64,000 bases of DNA from Gordonibacter sp. Marseille-P4307. Its GTDB lineage: Bacteria; Actinomycetota; Coriobacteriia; Coriobacteriales; Eggerthellaceae. Below are positions 21,193-33,163 of this stretch, piece after piece. Position 1 is the stretch's first letter. Each line of letters begins with the position of its first letter. A program made the translations under genes and the position numbers. The DNA lies in the NCBI RefSeq assembly GCF_900604965.1, contig NZ_UWPD01000001.1:1702834-1766833 (forward strand), given 5' to 3'. Under the pieces are notes generated by a model. It was not told the origin of the DNA. It worked only from the letters and a program-made list of their open reading frames with translations, and made no database searches.

Positions 21193-22428
21193 TCATAGCC
21201 CCCCCTTCCCGGCGGTCGCCGCGTCCGCCGCCTCGATCCTCCGGCCGATCCACCTCATGACCGGCACGGCCATGCTGTTGCCGATCGCCCTGTAGCGCGG
21301 GCCGTCGGGGCACTCGTCGGCCGGCCTGCCGCGATAGGGTATCCTCGTCCAATCGTCGGGGAGGCCCTGCAGCCGCTCGCACTCGCGCGGCGTGAGGCGC
21401 CTCACGGTGTAGCGCCTTCCGCCGTGCGCGACAAGCGGGGCCGAACCGCCGACCTTGAGCGATCCGCACATGTCATCGTCGATCGCGGCGTTGGCGCTGG
21501 CGTCGGCCATGCACACCACGGGCGGCCGCCCGTCCTGCGGGGCCGTCTGGGTCGGTGCGCGGCCCTCCGTGACGGCGGCGGCGGGCGACGTGGCGCAGTC
21601 GAGCGTGTAGGACGTCCCGTCCGAGCAGACGTTCGATCCGTTCGCGTCCGTGTGCGATGTCTGGATGCACACGGTCGGCACCTGGTTCGTCCCGGACGCC
21701 CCTCCGCGCAGCGTCGGCGACTCGTCCTCGCGGTAGCCTATCGACCCTGCGCCCGCCGTGTTGCCCGCGCAGAAGCCCGCTACCCGAGCGCGATCGCCTC
21801 CGCGAGCGCCTCCTGCAGTATCGGCGGCAAGCTCTTGCCTCTTCGCTCGGCTCGCCGCAGAATCCCCCGACAGGCAGTCGGGCTCAAAGAGTACCCCGCA
21901 AGCCTCTCGGAACCCGTTTCCAGCACGTCCGACAAGAAAGAGACGGCGGCGCCGCTGGGCCACTCCGAAGAATTGCGCGTCAAGAACGCGCCACGCGAGC
22001 CCATAACCCCCGCCGTCGGCCAGCTCCCGCAGGAGGCATCCGAAAGCCTCCCCGCCCTCGCTCGACAGCGCTCCCGGGACGTTCTCCCAAAGAACCCATC
22101 GAGGGCGTACCTCGCGAACGCATCGAACGAACTCGAACATGAGACCTGACTCACCTTTCAGACCCTCCCTCCTGCCCGCCACGGAGAAGGACTGGCACGG
22201 GCTCCCGCCAACCACCAGATCCACCTTCCCGCGAAACATCTTCCAATCCACTTTCGTCACGTCCCCGAGGTTCGGCACTTCCGGGTACCTGTACGCCAGG
22301 ACGGCGCAGGGGAACGGCTCCACCTCGCTGAACGCGACCGGCCGCCATCCCAGCGGTTCCCATGCCACGGTAGCGGCCTCGATGCCGCTGAACAGGCTGA
22401 CGTACCTCACGGCTACCGCCAGTCGCAT
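21193..22428 (-). CDS. DNA (cytosine-5) methyltransferase
   Basis: The protein has about 411 aa. It has the ordered C5 motifs: I 'YVSLFSGIEAATVAW', IV 'GGSPCQSFSVAGRR' with catalytic Cys, VI 'LWENVPGAL', VIII 'VAQRRRRLFLVG' and X 'RYRAIGNSMAVPVMRW'. A long variable target-recognition region lies between VIII and IX. It probably protects phage DNA from host restriction or acts in an orphan role, since no restriction enzyme is nearby. The GTG at 22410 would give the more usual N-terminus 'MRYVSLFSG' and may be the true start. Confidence 0.95.
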   Translation of the reverse strand: MRLAVAVRYVSLFSGIEAATVAWEPLGWRPVAFSEVEPFPCAVLAYRYPEVPNLGDVTKVDWKMFRGKVDLVVGGSPCQSFSVAGRREGLKGESGLMFEFVRCVREVRPRWVLWENVPGALSSEGGEAFGCLLRELADGGGYGLAWRVLDAQFFGVAQRRRRLFLVGRAGNGFREACGVLFEPDCLSGDSAASRAKRQELAADTAGGARGGDRARVAGFCAGNTAGAGSIGYREDESPTLRGGASGTNQVPTVCIQTSHTDANGSNVCSDGTSYTLDCATSPAAAVTEGRAPTQTAPQDGRPPVVCMADASANAAIDDDMCGSLKVGGSAPLVAHGGRRYTVRRLTPRECERLQGLPDDWTRIPYRGRPADECPDGPRYRAIGNSMAVPVMRWIGRRIEAADAATAGKGGL

Positions 22429-23147
22429 TCCGGCTGGGCGGTCGGCTCGACCGAGTCCGCCATGCCCGAAACGTCCGCGACCAGCTTCGCGTCGGCGCGG
22501 GACAGCCTCGCGAGGAGGACGTCGAACTTGGAGAGCCTTTTCAGGTCGGAGACGCGGAAACCCTCGTACCTGATCCGCCAAACGTCCTCGTTCCCGAAAG
22601 AGCTGATGGGAACGGACACCGCCAGGCCCTCGTCCTCTTCGCACGAGAACTCCAGCACGGCGCTGCGAAACAGGGAGCCGCACCGGAGCCGGTCATCGTC
22701 GATCAGCTCGACCCTCGCCGTCACGGCCTCGTACGACGGATCGTCGTCTGTGCAGATTTCCAGCTCCGACGTGTCAACATGATCCGCCACGTGCGAGCGG
22801 TACGCCTCGAACAGCTCCGTGACGGTAACGGAGCCCTTATCCGGCTCGACCATCAGCCCCTTGAAGTTATCGAGCAGAGCCGCGTTGTCTCTGAGCGCCG
22901 TCCTGTTGACGATCTCGGTCAGCGCGTCCTCGAGCTTCACGGCGTAGCCTTTGAAGTCGTGGCGCTCGATCGCCTTGGCCATCACGGCGTCGATCCTCTC
23001 GGTTATCGCCTTCCGCGACGCGCTGTTCCATCCGAGCGCGGCGTCGATGGCGTCCCTCACCGACTTTTCGACGCAGTCGACCACGATCCTCTCCATGGCC
23101 TCGTCGTTCACCGCGTCGGCGATCATCCGCTCTATCGTCTTTCCCAT
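22413..23147 (-). CDS. Early phage protein of unknown function
   Basis: The protein has 244 aa. The N-terminal 100 residues are helical and charged ('MGKTIERMIADAVNDEAMER'), the rest mixed and acidic with 'WRIRYEGFRVSDLKRLSKFD' near the end. No catalytic motif recognised. It starts at 23147 after AAGGAGCTGGC and overlaps the C5 methyltransferase start by up to 16 bases, so it may be functionally linked to it. Confidence 0.7.
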   Translation of the reverse strand: MGKTIERMIADAVNDEAMERIVVDCVEKSVRDAIDAALGWNSASRKAITERIDAVMAKAIERHDFKGYAVKLEDALTEIVNRTALRDNAALLDNFKGLMVEPDKGSVTVTELFEAYRSHVADHVDTSELEICTDDDPSYEAVTARVELIDDDRLRCGSLFRSAVLEFSCEEDEGLAVSVPISSFGNEDVWRIRYEGFRVSDLKRLSKFDVLLARLSRADAKLVADVSGMADSVEPTAQPECDWR

Positions 23148-25917: not shown

Positions 25918-26020
25918 GCCCGCCCCGTTTCCGTTGCATTTCCCTTCCAACGCCGCCGGGCGCGGAATCGCCTGCTCGCGGCCCGCTTCCGCCCGTTCGC
26001 GGTGCGCGTCCGGTGCGCTA
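25918..26020 (-). repeat. Direct repeat, copy B (after the early integrase gene)
   Basis: It begins at the TAG stop of the integrase at 26018 with ATAGCGCACCG and a second GCGCACCG. It ends with GTTGGAAGGGAAATGCAACG followed by GAAACGGGGC shortly before ssb. It matches copy A in order and exact spacing, although the middle has diverged. The TTG-led frame here is not kept as a gene, so this end may be a truncated copy of the DUF3310 gene start. Confidence 0.85.
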
Positions 26021-27172
26021 TCCGAAACCGTCCAGGCCGTCCATCGCGCGGGCGAACCTCGCGGCCGCCTCGCGCCCGCGCCCGGGCAGCACGTGCCCGT
26101 AGATGTCCATCGTGGTCTTGGCCGACTGGTGCCCCAGCCGCTCGCGCACCGTCAGGATGTTCTCCCCGCTCTCGAGCAGGTAGGTGGCGTGGGTGTGGCG
26201 CAGCGTGTGCAGGTGCGCGCCGGGCGCGAGCCCGATGCGGCGCGCGACGCGCCCGAACTCGGCCGTGAGCGCGTCGGGCATGACCGGCCCGCCCGCGTCC
26301 GTGCGCACGAGCGGGGCGGACTCGGCCAGGCCGTCGGCGTGCGCCGACGCGAGCGCCCCCGTCTCGTCGTCGAGCGCCACCACGCGCTTGGACGACCGCG
26401 ACTTGGGCGGCTTCTCGGAGCCGTCGAACGACAGCACCCGCGCCACGCGCAGCGAGACCCCGTCGGGGCCGCGCACGACGTGGCGGGCCTGCAGGCCGCA
26501 TATCTCGCCGCGCCGGAGCCCCGCGTACAGCCCGAGCCGCCACGCGACGGCCAGCGAGCGCCTGTAGGGCCCCGCCGCCGGGTCCGCGAGCTCGGCGGCG
26601 ACGAACGCGGCCAGCCGCGCGACGTCCTCGGGCGGGAGCGCGGCGGCCTCGGGCCGCTCGGGCATGGGGAGCACTATCCCGGCGGCCGGGTTTCCCCCGA
26701 CGATCCCGTCGCGCAGCATCCGCGTGAAGCATCCGCAGCACAGGGCGTGCACCTTCTTCACGGTCGAGGCCGACAGCCCCGCCCCGCCGGATGACTTGGG
26801 GCGGCGCAGCTCCCGGTACATCTTGGAGAAGTGCGCCGCCGTCAGCTCCTCGACCGGGACGCGCCCGATCCTCGGCCCGACGTGGCGCCGCAGGTACGAG
26901 CGGTACGCCTTGAGCGTCGCGGGCGAGGCCCCTCCCTGCTCGCACGACTCGAGGTAGTAGTCGAACAGGGCCGACGCGGAGAGCGCACCCGCGCCGCCCT
27001 TCGACACGTCGGCCCTGCGCGAGACGCGCTCGAGCGCTGCGGCTATGTCGTCCTCGGTCGCGCCGGGCGGCAGCACCTCGCCGACCGTCATGGGGCGGCC
27101 CGTCGCGGGGTTCACGCCCGCGTAGGCCCGCACGGCGTAGCCGCCGCCCCTCCTCTCGCTCACGTACGCCAT
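26018..27172 (-). CDS. Tyrosine recombinase (early-operon integrase)
   Basis: The protein has 384 aa. The N-terminal part has an AP2-like arm and core-binding domain ('LKAYRSYLRRHVGPRIGR'). Catalytic residues: Arg in 'GLYAGLRRGEICGLQ', the HxxR box 'LHTLRHTHATYLL', His in 'RERLGHQSAKTTM' and Tyr in 'DIYGHV'. All appear intact. It lies downstream of the Xis-like gene on the lytic strand, far from the visible attachment site. It may act in excision or serve another site. RBS: AGGAGGG. Confidence 0.92.
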   Translation of the reverse strand: MAYVSERRGGGYAVRAYAGVNPATGRPMTVGEVLPPGATEDDIAAALERVSRRADVSKGGAGALSASALFDYYLESCEQGGASPATLKAYRSYLRRHVGPRIGRVPVEELTAAHFSKMYRELRRPKSSGGAGLSASTVKKVHALCCGCFTRMLRDGIVGGNPAAGIVLPMPERPEAAALPPEDVARLAAFVAAELADPAAGPYRRSLAVAWRLGLYAGLRRGEICGLQARHVVRGPDGVSLRVARVLSFDGSEKPPKSRSSKRVVALDDETGALASAHADGLAESAPLVRTDAGGPVMPDALTAEFGRVARRIGLAPGAHLHTLRHTHATYLLESGENILTVRERLGHQSAKTTMDIYGHVLPGRGREAAARFARAMDGLDGFG

Positions 27173-27188: not shown

Positions 27189-27365
27189 CTACCATCCCAG
27201 CGCCTCCGTCGCGAAAACGCACATGCACAGCGGGACGAACAGCAGCGCCAGCACCGCCATCCCCGCCTTCCACTCGACCGTCTTCCCGTCGAGGCGCCCG
27301 CGCACCGCCTCCGATGCGGCCCTGCGGCCCGCCCGGACGGACGGGCACCGTCCCCTCGCAGTCAT
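27189..27365 (-). CDS. Small membrane protein between xis-like and integrase genes
   Basis: The protein has 58 aa. A basic N-terminus ('MTARGRCPSVRAGRRAASEA') is followed by a hydrophobic segment 'GMAVLALLFVPLCMCVFA' near the C-terminus. The ATG overlaps the Xis-like stop as ATGA, and the gene ends 17 bases before the integrase, so it is probably real and cotranslated. No family recognised. Confidence 0.6.
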   Translation of the reverse strand: MTARGRCPSVRAGRRAASEAVRGRLDGKTVEWKAGMAVLALLFVPLCMCVFATEALGW

Positions 27366-27544
27366 CTCGCAACCTCCAATCCCTCCAGGTAGTCGGCGAG
27401 CGCATCCCGCCTTATCAGGTACTTCCTGCCGCTCATGATGTGCGGCGGCGGCGCGGCGGAATGCAGGAGCTCGCGTATCCTGTCCGCGCTGATGCCGCTG
27501 TATTCCGCGGCCTGGTTGATGTTCATGTAGAGCGGGTAGTCCAT
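27362..27544 (-). CDS. Excisionase-like DNA-binding protein (MerR/Xis HTH)
   Basis: The protein has 60 aa. 'LYMNINQAAEYSGISADRIR' then 'ELL' and 'MSGRKYLIRRDALADYLEGL' form the winged-HTH signature of Xis/helix_turn_helix_17 proteins. It probably directs recombination toward excision with one of the two integrases. It is first in the minus-strand early operon, with GGAGGTGGGC before the ATG. Confidence 0.88.
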   Translation of the reverse strand: MDYPLYMNINQAAEYSGISADRIRELLHSAAPPPHIMSGRKYLIRRDALADYLEGLEVAR

Positions 27545-27707
27545 GAGCCCACCTCCTTCGCTATGTCTTGCTTTCGATACTCCGTTTCCCGCGCTTTTCG
27601 GCGAGCTGCGGGAGCGCCATGGTCGGCTCGCTCTGCTGTTCGGGCGCGGCGTGCCGGTATTTCAAGGTGCGGGGTCTCGACAACCTCACACGGCGCAGCT
27701 TGCCTGG

Positions 27708-27794
27708 TCACTTCCCGGAATCGTTTTTCGCTATGGCTAGACCGACGACCAATCCGGCGACGAAGAATTGGATTAACATTGCTATTGCGAACAT
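27708..27794 (-). CDS. Tiny hydrophobic peptide (28 aa)
   Basis: The sequence is almost wholly membrane-spanning ('MFAIAMLIQFFVAGLVVGLA') with a short polar tail. The ATG has AAAGGAAG six bases upstream. It lies on the minus strand just upstream of the plus-strand gene at 27821. It could be a toxin-like peptide, a small membrane effector or chance. The good RBS and strong hydrophobicity support it. Confidence 0.4.
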   Translation of the reverse strand: MFAIAMLIQFFVAGLVVGLAIAKNDSGK

Positions 27795-27820
27795 CCGACT
27801 TCCTTTCGATAGGGGCTTGT

Positions 27821-28369
27821 ATGCTCGGTAAAATCCTCGGTTTCCTGTTCAAGAACGTTTTTCTCGTTATGTTCATCGGGTCGATAGCCGCTTCGGGCTT
27901 CTTCTCCTACCAGTCGTTCGGGGCGGCGTTCTGGCTTGCGTCCGAAGAACCGGCGGCGTTCATGTCCGCGATGGCGGCATCCTTCTCGCTCGGCGCTTTC
28001 GTCGGCATGGCCACGCGTGTGCCGGGTTTTATCAAAGAGCGCAAATACGAGAAGAGGATGTTCGAAACGGCGTCCCGACAGCTCGAAGAGGCTGATAAAG
28101 ATACGTTTCTCTCGCTCGATAGAGCCGTCAAGTCGATGCTCGTCCGGCTCGAACGTGCAGGCGGGAGCAAGGTATTCGAATTGGACGACGGGAAGCTCGA
28201 AAAGAAGAACCTGAACAGAATGTCGACCGCGCTGGTAAAAGTCTCTGATTTTGGAGAGAAGAAGTACCTGCTCGTTCTCACCGACGAGGGGAAGCGCGTT
28301 CTCGATAATTCGCGCGATCTGGTCGATTCGTTCATCGCCGAGCAGCCCGACGGCTTCTTCGGCGACTAG
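27821..28369 (+). CDS. Lysogeny-region membrane protein with winged-helix-like tail
   Basis: The protein has 182 aa. Two hydrophobic segments lie in the first 70 residues ('ILGFLFKNVFLVMFIGSIAA', 'FMSAMAASFSLGAFVGMATR'), then a basic stretch and a cytoplasmic domain ending 'FGEKKYLLVLTDEGKRVLDN', which reads like a winged helix. It is plus-strand, opposite to the early operon, so probably expressed in the lysogen (moron or superinfection-exclusion type). RBS AGGGGC. No family recognised. Confidence 0.7.
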   Translation: MLGKILGFLFKNVFLVMFIGSIAASGFFSYQSFGAAFWLASEEPAAFMSAMAASFSLGAFVGMATRVPGFIKERKYEKRMFETASRQLEEADKDTFLSLDRAVKSMLVRLERAGGSKVFELDDGKLEKKNLNRMSTALVKVSDFGEKKYLLVLTDEGKRVLDNSRDLVDSFIAEQPDGFFGD

Positions 28370-28470
28370 CAGCTGCGCCGTATGAGGTTGTCAAGGTCCT
28401 GTCGGTGCTAGGGTTCCGAACAGTCGAATACCCGCATGACATGGCGGCGATTTATCAGGGAGGATTGGGA

Positions 28471-28908
28471 ATGGTCGAGCTGACTAACGAGGAGATGGCC
28501 GCTATCAAGGAGCTGACATCTGCGTACAAAAGCGGCAAGGATATCGGAGAGCTCATCTCCCAAAGGCTCTACGAGGAGCTGTCAACAAAAACGGTGGACG
28601 ATATCGGCAACGTGAGCCACGAGAAGCGCCCCGGGTTCGACGAGCAGATGAGCGTTTACGAGAGCCTAAGCGAGAAGGGTCTGCTGTCCAGCTACCAGTT
28701 GCCAATGAGCTTTCACAGGACGTTCGATGGGCTTACCAGCCTCGGGCGCTGCTACCTCGAAGACCGCGAAGCCGAATTGGCCGCAAGGAAAAAGGAGCTG
28801 CGTTCGGACCGCATCCACGATTACAAGGTGGCGTGCTTCAGCTTCGTCGGAGGCGCTGCCGCAGGCGGAATCGTCTCGTACGTCATGCACGTCCAGTTCG
28901 GCTTCTAG
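28471..28908 (+). CDS. Lysogeny-region winged-helix-like protein with C-terminal membrane segment
   Basis: The protein has 145 aa. The N-terminal 'MVELTNEEMAAIKELTSAYK' and the central 'VYESLSEKGLLSSYQLP' with 'TSLGRCYLEDREAELAARKK' suggest a helical or winged fold. A hydrophobic C-terminus follows ('VACFSFVGGAAAGGIVSYVM'). It is the mirror architecture of the gene at 27821 and may work with it. RBS GGAGG at 8 bases. It could be a prophage defence or exclusion factor, by inference only. Confidence 0.7.
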   Translation: MVELTNEEMAAIKELTSAYKSGKDIGELISQRLYEELSTKTVDDIGNVSHEKRPGFDEQMSVYESLSEKGLLSSYQLPMSFHRTFDGLTSLGRCYLEDREAELAARKKELRSDRIHDYKVACFSFVGGAAAGGIVSYVMHVQFGF

Positions 28909-29015
28909 ATTCCGAAGCCCTTCGCGATGAATCCGGCTATCATGCCTCCGAATACGCCTCCGGCAATACTGAACAGGCATACTATTAGGAACTCCCCCAT
29001 CAGGTCTCTTTTCAT
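28905..29015 (-). CDS. Tiny hydrophobic Gly-rich peptide (36 aa)
   Basis: The sequence begins 'MKRDLMGEFLIVCLFSIAGG' and continues with a Gly-rich hydrophobic segment and a basic end. AGAAGGT precedes the ATG. Its stop overlaps the stop of the gene at 28471 on the other strand. It lies downstream of the Cro-like gene on the same strand, so the same promoter could express it. A small membrane protein or toxin-like peptide is possible. Confidence 0.5.
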   Translation of the reverse strand: MKRDLMGEFLIVCLFSIAGGVFGGMIAGFIAKGFGI

Positions 29016-29102
29016 GGTTACCTTCTTTCTGTAGGCCGCCATGTCATGCGGATATTCGGCTTTCAAGGTTCCCGCCCGTCTGGGGCGGCGGTTGGTGGTT
29101 GC

Positions 29103-29324
29103 TTAGACGATGCTCTTGACTCTTTCATTGCGGTCGTCGGTCATCTCAAGCAGATAGTCGGGAGAGCATCCGAACAGCGTGCTGAGCTGCACTAGGTTTC
29201 TCCCACTAGGCTCGTAGCTTCCGTTTTCCCAACCACGCACGCTATTCGCGTGAACTCCGAGAAGATCAGCCACTTTCTCAGTGCTTAACCCAGATTTAAA
29301 CCGTTCGGCTCTTATTCGATTCAT
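29103..29324 (-). CDS. Cro-like HTH repressor
   Basis: The protein has 73 aa. An Xre HTH ('LSTEKVADLLGVHANSVRGW' then 'ENG') fills most of it, followed by a short tail. It is divergent from the CI-like gene and read from the strong promoter at 29370-29397, the classical Cro position. The ATG has AGGAGGTGACG upstream. It probably represses the lysogenic promoter during lytic growth. Confidence 0.88.
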   Translation of the reverse strand: MNRIRAERFKSGLSTEKVADLLGVHANSVRGWENGSYEPSGRNLVQLSTLFGCSPDYLLEMTDDRNERVKSIV

Positions 29325-29369
29325 TCGTCACCTCCTAATTACAAAGATTTGTTGTTAACTGATAGAACG

Positions 29370-29397
29370 AATATAACAGTTATCTGTTTGAAGTCAA
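29370..29397 (-). promoter_or_regulatory. Lytic (PR-like) promoter
   Basis: On the minus strand TTGACT (29392-29397) and TATATT (29370-29375) are spaced by 16 bases. The operator dyad at 29375-29388 fills the spacer. It drives the Cro-like gene and possibly the early operon beyond. It is almost certainly the CI-controlled switch. Confidence 0.85.
29375..29388. promoter_or_regulatory. Operator dyad AACAG-TTAT-CTGTT
   Basis: Perfect 5-bp arms lie between the -35 and -10 of the PR-like promoter. A bound CI- or Cro-like dimer would block RNA polymerase. Confidence 0.72.
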
Positions 29398-29411
29398 CAG
29401 AATTTTGGTAG

Positions 29412-29428
29412 ACAATACAAATTATTGT
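29412..29428. promoter_or_regulatory. Operator dyad ACAATA-CAAAT-TATTGT near the CI start
   Basis: Perfect 6-bp arms lie 15-31 bases before the CI-like ATG. A -35-like TTGAAG (29388-29393) and GACAAT (29411-29416) at 17-base spacing overlap it. This suggests autoregulation of CI by a second operator whose sequence differs from the first. Confidence 0.6.
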
Positions 29429-29442
29429 TAGAAGGGAAGACG

Positions 29443-30084
29443 ATGGATCACAACAAACTTGCTGAGATGAGAGAACGAGCTGGCCTTACTCAGCAGCAGC
29501 TAGCTGATAGACTCGGCGTGACCCAACAGACAGTCTGGTACTACGAAAAAGGTAGGCGAGAAATCAAATCGAGCGTGCTCATCGAAATGAGCAAGGCCCT
29601 TGGCTGCACTATTTCCGAACTGCTTGGAATTACCGAAGTTGCCGGGATCGTTCCGAATCGCGAGCACGTCATGCATCGCATGCCCGTGCTCGGTCGTATA
29701 GCCGCTGGAGACCCGCGAGAGGCAATAAGCCAGGCGGATGAATGGCATGACACGCGCGACGAACTGTGGAGGGGTCACGAGAACGCCTTCTGGTTGATGG
29801 TGTCCGGAACATCCATGAACAAGTTGTTCCCCGAAGGTTCGCTAGTGCTTGTCGATCCGGACATGGATGTTCGGAACGGTGATGTCGGAGCTGTGTTCGT
29901 CAACGGATACGACGCGACGATAAAGCGCGTGTTCTACGAACAGGGCGCGATAAGGCTGCATCCCGAAAGCTACGATCCAGATTACATCGACCGGATCATA
30001 GCTTACGATGACGAAAACGCGCCCGATTTCAGGGCGGTTGGTCGCGTAATAAGCTATTCGGCGCCAGATGGTTGGAGGGCATGA
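29443..30084 (+). CDS. CI-like repressor with S24 (LexA-type) self-cleavage domain
   Basis: The protein has 213 aa. N-terminal Xre HTH 'LTQQQLADRLGVTQQTVWYY'. C-terminal S24 domain: cleavage-type Ala-Gly in 'VLGRIAAGDP', catalytic Ser in 'VSGTSMNKLFPEGSL' and Lys in 'ATIKRVFY'. It keeps the prophage silent and is cleaved after RecA activation, so the phage should be SOS-inducible. ATG 29443 with GAAGGGAAG upstream is preferred over the TTG at 29425. Confidence 0.95.
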   Translation: MDHNKLAEMRERAGLTQQQLADRLGVTQQTVWYYEKGRREIKSSVLIEMSKALGCTISELLGITEVAGIVPNREHVMHRMPVLGRIAAGDPREAISQADEWHDTRDELWRGHENAFWLMVSGTSMNKLFPEGSLVLVDPDMDVRNGDVGAVFVNGYDATIKRVFYEQGAIRLHPESYDPDYIDRIIAYDDENAPDFRAVGRVISYSAPDGWRA

Positions 30085-30106
30085 AACACAGGCGAAGTGA
30101 CCATAA

Positions 30107-30214
30107 TTTGAAAACAAGTCGACCGTGTACGACTACGGAATAGACGACACGCCCGAGATCACGGTGATAGGGCGCGTGGCGTGGTACTGCGTGCCTTTCG
30201 ATTGGGAGTTCTAA
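30107..30214 (+). pseudogene. C-terminal remnant of a second repressor gene
   Basis: Thirty-five codons are open after a TAA at 30104-30106, with no start. The peptide 'DDTPEITVIGRVAWYCVPFD' resembles the end of S24-type repressors, as does the intact gene's 'FRAVGRVISYS'. It lies directly downstream of the CI-like gene and is probably left by past replacement of the immunity region. Confidence 0.5.
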
Positions 30215-30261
30215 TAACGTTTTTGTTTTAGAAATATGGTTTAGAGGAAATAATTTCAAAA

Positions 30262-30284
30262 AAATTTAGCATCATGCTAAATTT
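30262..30284. promoter_or_regulatory. 23-bp perfect operator dyad upstream of the toxin-antitoxin-chaperone operon
   Basis: AAATTTAGCAT (30262-30272) and ATGCTAAATTT (30274-30284) flank one base. It lies 15 bases before the TTG of the toxin gene and overlaps the expected promoter in an AT-rich stretch. An autoregulatory site for the HTH antitoxin is the natural reading. Confidence 0.8.
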
Positions 30285-30298
30285 TAGGAGGTGACGAA

Positions 30299-30625
30299 TT
30301 GGCGGGTCCGACATATCCGCTCGAAAAGGTGAAGGGCATCGCTCGGAGCGGAAACGGCCTGATCCTGTCGAAGCGCGTCACGATCTACATGAACGACCGA
30401 TACAGGGAGTTCGGAAGGCCTTTAGAGATAGCCCGGTCGATATGCTTGGCTGCAAAAGAGTCCGACTTCGAAAAGACCTCCGAGTTGAAGAAGAGACCGG
30501 GCACAATGGCAGACATATATTCGGTCGAATGGGAAGAAGAGGTCTGGTATCTGAAATTCTTCGTCGATTACGGCGAACCGGTTATCGTCGTCTGGTCGTG
30601 CAAGCACGACGGGGACATGTGCTAA
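30299..30625 (+). CDS. mqsR: MqsR-type toxin (mRNA interferase)
   Basis: The protein has 108 aa. 'LEKVKGIARSGNGLILSKRV' at the start, 'SICLAAKESDFEKTSELKKR' in the middle, and 'ADIYSVEWEEEVWYLKFFV' match the order of MqsR blocks (a vxk helix, 'SDFyKs', 'qDVY...vYlKi'). MqsR is a RelE-fold ribonuclease cutting mRNA mainly at GCU. A TTG start with AGGAGGTG six bases upstream may keep expression low. It is first in the operon, before the antitoxin, as in E. coli mqsRA. Confidence 0.85.
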   Translation: MAGPTYPLEKVKGIARSGNGLILSKRVTIYMNDRYREFGRPLEIARSICLAAKESDFEKTSELKKRPGTMADIYSVEWEEEVWYLKFFVDYGEPVIVVWSCKHDGDMC

Positions 30626-30634
30626 GGAGTCGAT

Positions 30635-31135
30635 ATGATCTGTGCAGAATGCGGAGATGAGCTTGAGAAGAGTTATGCGCCGATCGAGACTGCGTTCAGG
30701 GGGACGATGGTCGTTGTCGAGGGTGTCGAGCATTTCGTCTGCCGATCGTGCAGCGAGGTGTTCTTCAATGGTGGTCAGGCCGACGATTTCGCGGACGCGG
30801 TCGACGCGGCTTACAGAAGGGCGAACGGCCTCCTTGCTCCTGACGAGATAAGGCGCATCAGAAAGCAGCTCCGGATGAACCAGGACGAGTTCCAGAGCCT
30901 GCTCGGCGTCGGCAAAACAACCGTCAGCAGGTGGGAAAGCGGCAGGATCATCCAGTCAAAATCGACCGACAATCTGATAAGGCTTGCGGCAGCCAGCCGA
31001 GACAACGTGGAACTCCTCAGAAAGTCGGCCGCCCATGGAAACAGTTTCCCCGTCCAAGCGTCCGCAAGAAGCGAATGGGCTGGACGGTCGAAAAGCAGAA
31101 ACGTCACGTTAATCGGTCTGCACGGCGAAAGGTAG
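30635..31135 (+). CDS. mqsA: MqsA-type antitoxin with long C-terminal extension
   Basis: The protein has 166 aa, against about 131 for E. coli MqsA. The N-terminal zinc domain has 'MICAECGDELEKSY' and 'VEHFVCRSCSEVFFNG'. The HTH is 'LRMNQDEFQSLLGVGKTTVS' then 'RWESG'. After residue about 130 a basic, disorder-like tail follows ('ARSEWAGRSKSRNVTLIGLH'). In TAC systems such an extension is the chaperone-addiction region that makes the antitoxin unstable without its chaperone. The next gene is the candidate chaperone, 3 bases away. Confidence 0.88.
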   Translation: MICAECGDELEKSYAPIETAFRGTMVVVEGVEHFVCRSCSEVFFNGGQADDFADAVDAAYRRANGLLAPDEIRRIRKQLRMNQDEFQSLLGVGKTTVSRWESGRIIQSKSTDNLIRLAAASRDNVELLRKSAAHGNSFPVQASARSEWAGRSKSRNVTLIGLHGER

Positions 31136-31138
31136 AAG

Positions 31139-31591
31139 ATGCTCAACAAATTCGATTTCACTGAAAGCCTTAGGAGCGTTCGCGTTGGCCCTTATTACGT
31201 CGAGAGGTACTCATGCGTGGTCGGTGACAGGGCAGGCGAGGACGACGGCCCACTGTCTCTGAGCGTAAATCGAAAGGTATCTGATCCGGATAATAACGGC
31301 GGCACCCTCTCATGCATAGCGAGCGTATCCCTTACGCTGTCTGACGGGAGCGAAGAACCTAAAACGGAGATATCCATCACAGTCACAGGGATGCTAACCG
31401 GCAACGAAAAGCTGGGTATAGAAGATTTTGAAAGGATGTGCCTTACCGACGGCGCTGACGAGCTGTACTCGATAGCAAAGAGCACGCTGGCTACACTGTC
31501 GGCGACGAGCCCGATATCGATCGATCCGCTTCCATCTCTCGAATCGTCGGCGACGCTGGAAGCGAACTCGTCGTGCAGCAAGGACGAATAG
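31139..31591 (+). CDS. Putative SecB-like TAC chaperone
   Basis: The protein has 150 aa. A run of strands in the first two thirds ends in 'TEISITVTGMLTGNEKLGIE'. A block 'DFERMCLTDGADELYSIAKS' then 'TLATLSATSPISIDPLPS' follows, which parallels the SecB end: EEF-type helix, 'LyPyaRe.is.lt', then a Pro-containing strand. The Ser/Glu-rich tail is unusual. Position directly after an extended MqsA makes a TAC-chaperone reading likely (as described for MqsRAC and HigBAC). The similarity is by eye only. Confidence 0.65.
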   Translation: MLNKFDFTESLRSVRVGPYYVERYSCVVGDRAGEDDGPLSLSVNRKVSDPDNNGGTLSCIASVSLTLSDGSEEPKTEISITVTGMLTGNEKLGIEDFERMCLTDGADELYSIAKSTLATLSATSPISIDPLPSLESSATLEANSSCSKDE

Positions 31592-31643
31592 CGAGCTTGT
31601 CAGCACGAGGGCACTTCAAGAGTCTTTCAAGCTCGTAAGCCAC

Positions 31644-31799
31644 ATGTTCTACAACAAGCGTCTGGAAAAGCTGATTCTGCCGTCCAGCAAGAGCGCATCT
31701 TCGCTTTACAAGGCGCTGCCCGAATCGGCGAAGATGGTCATGGACTCCAAGGGCGTGAAGGGAAAGCTGATGAGAAAAGGAAATGGGGCTTTCGCTTAG
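31644..31799 (+). CDS. Small basic ORF after the TAC operon (51 aa)
   Basis: 'MFYNKRLEKLILPSSKSASS' and 'LPESAKMVMDSKGVKGKLMR' are Lys-rich and plausible as protein, but there is no good RBS. The frame stays open upstream to about 31560 without a usable start, so it may be the 3' end of a decayed gene. No family recognised. The rest of the 31592-31984 gap holds the hairpin at 31904 and nothing else I can support. Confidence 0.35.
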   Translation: MFYNKRLEKLILPSSKSASSLYKALPESAKMVMDSKGVKGKLMRKGNGAFA

Positions 31800-31903
31800 G
31801 TATCTCTCCGTTTGCGTCCACCCCGTGGTAACAAGGAGAATATACCAACAGCGCGAATGATTTTCAACACGTTCCGACCGGGAACGGCAACCGAATGAGA
31901 CAA

Positions 31904-31940
31904 CCCGCCGCGCATAAGGGCTGCAACCCTGCGCGGCGGG
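31904..31940. terminator. Strong GC hairpin upstream of the integrase
   Basis: CCCGCCGCGC pairs perfectly with GCGCGGCGGG, and an inner AGGG/CCCT pair extends it. No T-run follows, so classical termination is doubtful. It may be an attenuator or a protein or recombinase site close to the integrase gene. Confidence 0.5.
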
Positions 31941-31984
31941 AAGGGAACACCAACCGCGTAAACGGAAGGCATGTCGATTCTACC

Positions 31985-33106
31985 ATGTCCATCACCAAGA
32001 AGATAAGGCCGGATGGGAGCGCGTACTACCTTCTCGTCGAGAGCACCGGTTACGATCTCGACGGAAAGAGGACGCGCGTTCAGAGGCGGTTCGACCGCAA
32101 GGGCGACGCGAAAACCGAGCAGGCGCGCATAATCGCGGAGCGAGACGCGCTGCGCAACCGCTCGGGCCGCATCGCGCTCGAAAGCTACATCGACCGTTTC
32201 TACGCGCCGCACATCGACAGGCTCGCAGCGAGTTCGCGCGATACCTACGAGCGGGAGATACGGCTGCGTATAAAGCCGCACCTGGGCCGCTTCGACGTGC
32301 GCGACATCGACCGCATCAAGATACAGCGCATGGTGGACGCCTGCGGAACGGAGCCGGTTGCGCGGAAGGCCATCGGACTGCTGCGAACAATCCTGCATCA
32401 CGCTGTTTCTGATAGGCTCATAGCCGTCAATCCAGCTTCCGCCAAGTTCGTCATGCCGCCGACCGGGAAGCGGCGCGGAAACGACGCCGTCATATCGACG
32501 TTCGAAGCGATGGAGCCGCTGCTGAGGGCCGTGGACGAATACGCCGAGCGCAGCGTGCTTCTCATTGCGTCCACCGGCCTTCTGCTCGGCCTGCGCCCGG
32601 AAGAGCGATACGGTTTGGATTGGGAAGATATCGACCTCGCCGACCGCACCATCACGGTCAGGCGCGCGTTCACCGCCGCAAGCGGAAAGCACGGCGGCAA
32701 CGACCTGAAAGCGCCTAAGACGGCTAAATCCGCCCGAACGGTGCCGATACCCGCCGCGCTCGCCGAAAGGCTGGGAGAGCCGGGGTCGGGCGCCCTCATA
32801 CTGGGCGCTGGCGGCGTGCGGATATCGCCGTCCACCGCCCAGAAGAGATGGGCGCGGTTCTGCCGCTGGTGCGCGTCCACCCGCCCCGATGCGCCGATCG
32901 TGACCATCGAGAACATGCGCCATTCGTTCGCAACGAGCTACCTGCACGCGGGCGGCAACGTGGAGGACCTGTCGCGCATGCTCGGGCACAGCGACATCAA
33001 CACCACCTATCGGCGGTACGTGCGCCCCAACGCCGAAGACCTCAGAGCGGGGATGGACGCGGTGGACGGGATTTTTTGCCAATCTAGCGGCAGTCTAGCC
33101 GAATGA
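31985..33106 (+). CDS. Tyrosine recombinase adjacent to the attachment site
   Basis: The protein has 373 aa. An N-terminal AP2-like arm domain ('GSAYYLLVESTGYDLDGKRT'), core-binding domain ('TYEREIRLRIKPHLGRFDVR') and catalytic domain: Arg in 'LLLGLRPEERYGLDW', 'MRHSFATSYLHAGG' for the second Arg, His in 'MLGHSDINTT' and Tyr in 'YRRYV'. The box II His of HxxR appears as Glu ('IENMRH'). Only 57 bases separate it from the tmRNA/tRNA-like end, so it probably made this integration. The ATG at 31985 has GGAAGG 15 bases upstream, so the start is uncertain. Confidence 0.9.
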   Translation: MSITKKIRPDGSAYYLLVESTGYDLDGKRTRVQRRFDRKGDAKTEQARIIAERDALRNRSGRIALESYIDRFYAPHIDRLAASSRDTYEREIRLRIKPHLGRFDVRDIDRIKIQRMVDACGTEPVARKAIGLLRTILHHAVSDRLIAVNPASAKFVMPPTGKRRGNDAVISTFEAMEPLLRAVDEYAERSVLLIASTGLLLGLRPEERYGLDWEDIDLADRTITVRRAFTAASGKHGGNDLKAPKTAKSARTVPIPAALAERLGEPGSGALILGAGGVRISPSTAQKRWARFCRWCASTRPDAPIVTIENMRHSFATSYLHAGGNVEDLSRMLGHSDINTTYRRYVRPNAEDLRAGMDAVDGIFCQSSGSLAE

Positions 33107-33163
33107 CGTTTTACCAGTTCATCAGTATAATCCTATGGAGTTCGATTCTCCGCGCCTCCACCA
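33107..33163 (+). other. attR-like site: 3' end of a tmRNA/tRNA(Ala)-like gene
   Basis: A T-arm GGAG-TTCGATT-CTCC (33137-33151) is followed by acceptor CGCCTCC, discriminator A and CCA ending at 33163. CTCCACCA would give the G3-U70 identity of alanine tRNA and tmRNA. The rest of the gene is not present, as expected when a phage restores only the 3' end. A nearby rnr gene favours ssrA, but tRNA(Ala) is possible. Confidence 0.75.

What the first reader, a model, noticed from the sequence alone, without database searches (positions are those of the whole stretch)
30299..31591. Phage-borne toxin-antitoxin-chaperone (MqsRAC-type) system
An MqsR-like toxin, an MqsA-like antitoxin about 35 residues longer than the E. 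coli form, and a third gene 3 bases downstream whose C-terminal half follows the SecB pattern (EDF helix, 'ELYSIAKSTLATLS', Pro-containing strand). In known TAC systems (HigBAC, MqsRAC) the antitoxin's C-terminal extension makes it depend on a dedicated SecB-like chaperone. A TAC on a temperate phage of this lineage would tie addiction, and possibly phage defence, to proteostasis.
Basis: partly seen in the sequence, partly recalled or inferred. Interest (0 to 1): 0.85.

Follow-up and report, generated by a model that had tools for sequence, protein, structure and literature searches.

The report
Prophage toxin–antitoxin–chaperone (MqsRAC-type) operon
A dormant virus in a gut-type actinobacterium carries a three-gene 'poison, antidote and antidote-helper' switch; the helper is a very diverged relative of the protein-folding helper SecB, and the same switch sits in the same spot in related viruses, which makes it a plausible weapon against rival viruses.

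Summary
At 30299-31591 lie an MqsR-fold toxin, an MqsA antitoxin with a ~45-residue tail, and, 3 nt on, a 150-aa protein with the SecB fold. The third protein has no Pfam, NCBIfam, PADLOC or PDB sequence hit alone. A profile of it and 13 relatives hits SecB first in the PDB (E 1e-6). Its AlphaFold model matches E. coli/Haemophilus SecB (Z 12-13) and M. tuberculosis Rv1957 bound to its antitoxin peptide (Z 10.6). Across Coriobacteriia, MqsA tails of 40 or more residues come with a SecB-like gene in 14 of 15 MqsRA loci, and shorter tails in none of 16. Elsewhere the same chaperone family follows HicAB or HigBA-like pairs. That is the genomic signature of chaperone-addicted TA (TAC) systems. The host has no SecB of its own. 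The operon is prophage cargo between CI repressor and integrase in a ~33.8-kb element in the tmRNA gene; the same layout recurs in three further phages, one of them with a different TA pair. Novel: an actinobacterial, phage-borne MqsRAC whose chaperone escapes the SecB model. Not novel: MqsRAC itself and its anti-phage role (E. coli C496_10). Chaperone dependence, toxicity and defence are untested here.

The parts
30261..30285 (.). Perfect palindrome AAAATTTAGCATCATGCTAAATTTT (12-nt arms, 1-nt centre), likely MqsA operator, directly upstream of the ribosome-binding site
   Evidence: chance 0.02 per window for the 17-nt core; a TAGC..GCTA palindrome lies within ~75 nt upstream of nearly all coriobacterial mqsR genes examined
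30286..30291 (+). Shine-Dalgarno AGGAGG of mqsR
   Evidence: read directly from sequence
30299..30625 (+). MqsR-type toxin (108 aa, TTG start)
   Evidence: PF15723 E 0.0022; family profile vs 3hi2 E 2.9e-11; AF2 pLDDT 92, Foldseek top hit MqsR 3hi2
30635..31135 (+). MqsA-type antitoxin (166 aa): N-terminal Zn-ribbon, Xre HTH, C-terminal extension
   Evidence: TIGR03830 3.3e-30; PF15731 2.9e-15; profile vs 2kz8/3gn5 E 8e-18
30998..31132 (+). C-terminal tail of MqsA (~45 residues after the HTH domain, contains EWAGRSKSRNVTLIGL), candidate chaperone-addiction region (ChAD)
   Evidence: tail length vs SecB-like neighbour across loci; Trp followed by Arg recalls the ChAD W108/R110 motif (PMC6377645), resemblance only
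31139..31591 (+). SecB-fold chaperone of the TAC operon (150 aa, MqsC-like)
29425..30084 (+). CI-like phage repressor (HTH + S24 peptidase), immediately upstream, same strand
29103..29324 (-). Cro-like divergent regulator
31895..33106 (+). Tyrosine integrase next to the right attachment site
33137..33163 (+). attR: 27-bp copy of the 3' end of ssrA (tmRNA); the left copy ends the tmRNA gene just outside the window

Best explanation
This is a tripartite toxin-antitoxin-chaperone (TAC) operon of MqsRAC type carried as cargo by a temperate siphovirus-like prophage. Shown here: an MqsR-fold toxin, an MqsA antitoxin with an added C-terminal tail, and a SecB-fold third protein, in one operon behind a palindromic operator and between repressor and integrase. 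Inferred from characterised systems: the tail makes nascent MqsA unable to fold alone; the SecB-like protein binds the tail and lets MqsA fold, hold MqsR and repress the operator. When the chaperone is drawn away by other unfolded protein (for CmdTAC this is newly made capsid protein of an infecting phage), MqsA is lost, MqsR is freed and cleaves mRNA, and growth and incoming phage replication stop. Operon orientation and place next to cI fit expression in the lysogen, so the prophage probably gains superinfection exclusion and/or its own retention. The 0.9 below is for identity as a TAC; I put defence as its main benefit at about 0.55.
For: SecB fold: the A2 profile vs PDB gives SecB 1fx3, 1qyn, 5jtl as the only significant hits (E 1.3e-6 to 1.6e-5). 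Foldseek's first 19 rows are all SecB or Rv1957; VIA Z 12.9 for E. coli SecB and 10.6 for the Rv1957-ChAD complex, against 6.4 or less for LptE and other unrelated folds. Membership of P0003 in the family. Tail and chaperone travel together: with an MqsR gene upstream, tails of 40 or more residues have a SecB-like gene in 14 of 15 loci and shorter tails in 0 of 16 (with L149 added). The exception (L011) carries a ~160-residue extra domain instead of a plain tail. Module swapping: the same chaperone family directly follows HicA-HicB (L087, PF07927 and PF15919) and HTH antitoxins with RelE/HigB-like partners (L074-L089; L002). The host genome has no PF02556 SecB and no second member of this family, so the chaperone is dedicated. 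Prophage. Same order CI-like - MqsR - MqsA - SecB-like - int in L149, L148 and its genome copy L229; CI - RelE-like - HTH - SecB-like - int in L209. Literature: MqsR of E. coli C496_10 needs MqsA and MqsC for rescue and the operon blocks T2 (PMC9519451); Vcho-MqsA residues 136-176 act as ChAD (PMC5105189); capsid triggers CmdTAC (PMC11618068).
Against: No functional data. The chaperone model has only fair confidence (pLDDT 76; residues 4-7 and 136-150 are low). P0003 does not hit PF02556 and has no close relative anywhere searched. The tail has no clear alignment with known ChADs, though known ChADs do not align with each other either (PMC5105189). The toxin's terminal His, common in its family, is Cys here, so activity could be altered.
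Confidence: 0.9

Rival explanations
1. The MqsRA pair is an ordinary two-gene TA and the SecB-like protein is a separate phage chaperone (for export, capsid folding or counter-defence) that happens to sit next to it.
For: SecB-like genes occur in phages and plasmids (PMC4257090). A phage at the same genomic position carries MqsRA without a SecB-like gene (L150), so MqsRA can stand alone.
Against: In L150 the MqsA tail is short and lysine-rich. Across loci the SecB-like gene appears only with tails of 40 or more residues. Nearly all relatives whose context was read sit directly behind an antitoxin.
Confidence: 0.06
2. It is a TAC, but its role is only post-segregational retention of the prophage, not phage defence.
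For: Prophage cargo in the lysogeny module; TA pairs are known to stabilise mobile elements. The low G+C of the operon (55% vs 66% for the prophage) marks it as acquired cargo.
Against: The only tested relatives with the same three parts (MqsRAC of E. coli C496_10) and CmdTAC defend against phage (PMC9519451, PMC10783111, PMC11618068). An integrated element has little need of a plasmid-type addiction device, though excision could trigger one.
Confidence: 0.35
3. The operon is decayed: the toxin or chaperone is no longer active.
For: The terminal residue of the toxin departs from its family (Cys for His), and the chaperone is among the most diverged members (13-25% identity to the others).
Against: All three frames are open, the SD, 3-nt spacing and operator are intact, and the SecB fold is predicted.
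Confidence: 0.1

Closest known systems
MqsRAC of E. coli C496_10 (Vassallo et al. 2022, PMC9519451; PMC10783111)
   Same: MqsR toxin, MqsA antitoxin, SecB-like third gene; MqsR toxicity was relieved only with both MqsA and MqsC
   Different: Different phylum; the present chaperone is below detection by PF02556 and carried in the CI-integrase interval of a coriobacterial prophage; function untested
V. cholerae RC385 MqsRA plus TAC chaperone (Bordes et al. 2016, PMC5105189)
   Same: MqsA with a ~40-residue C-terminal chaperone-addiction region (136-176)
   Different: No significant similarity among ChADs, so the tail here cannot be aligned with it
HigB1-HigA1-Rv1957 TAC of M. tuberculosis (PDB 5mtw; Guillet et al. 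2019, PMC6377645)
   Same: Predicted fold of the third protein (Z 10.6); tail with Trp and Arg as in 108WHRLSSYR; actinobacterial
   Different: HigBA rather than MqsRA; 12% identity in the chaperone; chromosomal
CmdTAC (PD-T4-9) of E. coli ECOR22 (PMC11618068)
   Same: Three-gene TAC logic, SecB-like chaperone, phage-defence role
   Different: Toxin is an mRNA ADP-ribosyltransferase, antitoxin unrelated
PHROG phrog_21664 (function unknown)
   Same: Phage protein family that matches the third protein (E 4.6e-5, residues 60-144)
   Different: Unannotated; the present work suggests it is a TAC-type SecB-like chaperone

Membership tests
TAC (toxin-antitoxin-SecB-like chaperone) systems | Toxin, antitoxin and chaperone genes in one co-directional operon | tested here: met
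   gaps 9 and 3 nt, all on +
TAC (toxin-antitoxin-SecB-like chaperone) systems | Antitoxin carries a C-terminal extension beyond its canonical domain | tested here: met
   166 aa against 131 in E. coli MqsA; ~45 residues beyond the HTH
TAC (toxin-antitoxin-SecB-like chaperone) systems | Third protein has the SecB fold | tested here: met
   predicted model, not a solved structure
TAC (toxin-antitoxin-SecB-like chaperone) systems | Chaperone is needed for the antitoxin to neutralise the toxin, and the tail confers the need | not testable with these tools
   only indirect: tail length and chaperone gene co-occur
SecB (PF02556) | Scores above the curated cut-off of the Pfam model | tested here: not met
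   no PF02556 match in the genome or for P0003; the relation rests on the family profile and fold. PMC4257090 also reports TAC chaperones outside PF02556
MqsR (PF15723) | MqsR sequence family and fold | tested here: met
   single-sequence hit below cut-off, family profile E 2.9e-11 to 3hi2, fold
MqsR (PF15723) | mRNA endonuclease activity | not testable with these tools
   needs an assay
MqsA (TIGR03830/PF15731) | N-terminal Zn-ribbon with CxxC pairs plus Xre HTH | tested here: met
Phage-borne element | Lies inside a prophage with structural genes, integrase and attachment repeats | tested here: met

The most novel reading that the evidence does not exclude
TAC operons are an exchangeable superinfection-exclusion cassette at the repressor-integrase interval of coriobacterial temperate phages, whose chaperones have diverged so that they sense the capsid proteins of rival phages but not that of their own prophage (a self-blind, capsid-sensing switch).
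Probability: 0.2. Interest if true: 0.8.

Novelty: new member of a known kind. Interest (0 to 1): 0.5.

Why it matters
Few TAC systems have been studied in experiment, and the SecB Pfam model misses this coriobacterial branch: 48 of 398 genomes of the class hold a relative by the family profile, and most of those read lie behind a TA pair. A prophage that carries a type of defence known to sense capsid raises a directly testable question: how does it avoid setting off its own switch on induction? The set also offers a natural experiment, phages with and without the chaperone at the same position.

Tried and rejected
Single-sequence searches with the third protein (Pfam, NCBIfam, PADLOC, PDB, phage records, viral and genome contigs) found nothing useful; only the class-wide profile worked. 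Alignment A2 was too diverse for pattern scans of the collections. Named phage records hold no relative of two sister chaperones. The two phage records that match MqsA (H7, H8) have partner genes with no convincing MqsR match and no SecB-like gene. Idea that the low-G+C block 27.5-33.1 kb is a separate small element: no third copy of the attachment core lies inside the window, and a Collinsella prophage shows the same two-integrase layout, so one prophage is the simpler reading, though a separate origin of the block is not excluded. The 40-residue tail cut-off was chosen after seeing the data; at 35 residues Fisher P is 4e-5, and near-identical loci (L009/L010, L015/L018) are not independent.

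Full report
What is there. The window lies in a 1.8-Mb genome of the class Coriobacteriia, judged from its relatives (the class relatives named are Collinsella, Adlercreutzia, Olsenella and others; the family is probably Eggerthellaceae, inference). At 30299-31591 three genes run head to tail on the + strand with gaps of 9 and 3 nt. The first has a TTG start 7 nt after a perfect AGGAGG.

Toxin. Alone it touches PF15723 MqsR only weakly (E 0.0022). A profile of 20 coriobacterial relatives finds E. coli MqsR 3hi2 as the only significant PDB sequence (E 2.9e-11), and the AlphaFold model (pLDDT 92) matches 3hi2 first, followed at a distance by RelE and HigB. Invariant columns of the family include D72, Y84, K86, F87 and G105. 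Most relatives outside one subgroup end in His; this one ends in Cys.

Antitoxin. It is a clear MqsA (TIGR03830 E 3.3e-30; 2kz8/3gn5 E 8e-18) with C3/C6 and C36/C39 invariant. About 45 residues follow the HTH domain. The tail holds EWAGRSKSRNVTLIGL; the Trp-then-Arg pattern recalls 108WHRLSSYR and 137WARHISVR of the M. tuberculosis HigA1 ChAD (PMC6377645). This is a resemblance, not a test.

Third protein. No library knows it, except an unannotated phage family, phrog_21664 (E 4.6e-5). Searching 398 genomes of the class with the toxin and the antitoxin gave about 30 loci; reading downstream of each mqsA revealed a 140-160-aa ORF wherever the antitoxin had a long plain tail. An alignment of 14 such proteins (A2) hits SecB entries as the only significant PDB sequences. 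The window protein scores 38 bits (E 1.2e-10 for 2001 sequences) against the profile built without it, shuffles at most 7.8 bits. Its model has four strands (14-28, 40-53, 56-68, 76-89), a long helix (94-122) and a weaker C-terminal helix. Foldseek and VIA-align both rank E. coli and Haemophilus SecB and the Rv1957-ChAD complex at the top, well clear of unrelated folds. The next rows, 2o2a and 2hng, are uncharacterised streptococcal proteins.

Tail and chaperone travel together. Among MqsA loci with an adjacent mqsR, tails of 40 or more residues have a SecB-like gene in 14 of 15 cases (counting L149, whose chaperone start was resolved), and tails under 40 residues in 0 of 16. The one long exception, L011, has a ~160-residue extra domain. 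Fisher's test at a 35-residue cut and before the L149 correction gives P 4e-5. Phylogenetic non-independence is not removed.

The chaperone is a module. The A2 profile finds relatives in 48 of 398 genomes. Of 17 further loci read, most sit directly behind an Xre-type antitoxin with its own tail and a RelE/HigB-like partner, and one behind HicA-HicB (PF07927, PF15919); L002 is the same pattern with a HigA-like antitoxin. This is the pattern described for TAC systems, where the SecB-like gene joins different TA families (PMC4257090). The host lacks a PF02556 SecB and any second member of this family.

Control element. A perfect 25-bp palindrome AAAATTTAGCATCATGCTAAATTTT ends directly before the ribosome-binding site. 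A related palindrome (core TAGC..GCTA) lies upstream of nearly all mqsR genes examined, with or without chaperone, so it is most likely the MqsA operator. A weak promoter-like match sits just upstream (30227-30254).

Prophage. Terminase, portal, major capsid, tape-measure and tail genes fill the left part; a Cro-like gene, a CI/S24 repressor, the TAC and an integrase follow. The right edge is a 27-bp copy of the ssrA (tmRNA) 3' end at 33137-33163, and the left copy ends the tmRNA gene itself just outside the window, giving an element of ~33.8 kb. The TAC has 55% G+C against 66% for the prophage. The order repressor-like gene - MqsR - MqsA - SecB-like - integrase recurs in a Collinsella prophage (L229, the same element as viral contig L148) and in viral contig L149; in L209 the same interval holds a RelE-like/HTH/SecB-like TAC; in viral contig L150 it holds MqsRA with a short tail and no chaperone. 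In Olsenella (L231) the TAC lies downstream of a CI-like gene but the contig ends before an integrase could be seen.

Mechanism. Shown: parts, predicted folds, order, co-occurrence, prophage position. Inferred from HigBAC, MqsRAC and CmdTAC work: tail-dependent folding of MqsA on the chaperone; release of MqsR when the chaperone is occupied; mRNA cleavage and growth arrest. In E. coli, MqsR toxicity is relieved only by MqsA plus MqsC, the operon blocks T2, and extra MqsC inhibits protection (PMC9519451); T4 capsid protein outcompetes CmdA for CmdC (PMC11618068). The placing next to cI on the same strand suggests expression in the lysogen and thus superinfection exclusion, with prophage retention as a second possibility.

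Judgement. The finding is real and correctly read. It is a new member of a known kind: MqsRAC-type TAC, and SecB-like genes in phages, have been described (PMC9519451, PMC5105189, PMC4257090). New here are the coriobacterial prophage setting, a chaperone branch missed by the SecB model, the exchange of TA pairs at one phage locus, and a conserved operator.

Noticed in passing
window 33137-33163 and G000:C2:1702182-1702208 (L242:15349-15375): The prophage (~33.8 kb) sits in the 3' end of ssrA (tmRNA); 27-bp attachment repeat. A genus mate (G024) has ~11 kb between tmRNA and rnr, another (G026) under 2 kb, so the site is a variable integration spot.
   Followed up: partly
window 26018-27172 (-): A second tyrosine recombinase (PF00589 E 4.5e-14) with an excisionase-like gene (27362-27544) lies inside the same prophage, and a Collinsella prophage (L229) has a similar two-integrase layout.
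   Followed up: partly
window 27500-33100: Sharp drop in G+C at ~27.5 kb (about 70% to 55%) marks the lysogeny module as a block of different origin from the structural genes.
   Followed up: partly
L150 2846-4902: Viral contig with CI - MqsR - MqsA (short, lysine-rich tail) - integrase and no SecB-like gene: a natural two-component control.
   Followed up: yes
L087: HicA-HicB with a tail followed by a SecB-like gene: a HicABC-type TAC in Coriobacteriia.
   Followed up: partly
L011 1501-2358: MqsA fused to an extra ~160-residue C-terminal domain, with no SecB-like gene.
   Followed up: no
window 21193-22683 (-): Prophage-encoded C5-cytosine DNA methyltransferase (PF00145 E 4e-52), perhaps protection against restriction.
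   Followed up: no
window 31139-31591 (match to PHROG family phrog_21664): A PHROG of unknown function matches the third protein; it may be re-annotated as a TAC-type SecB-like chaperone.
   Followed up: no
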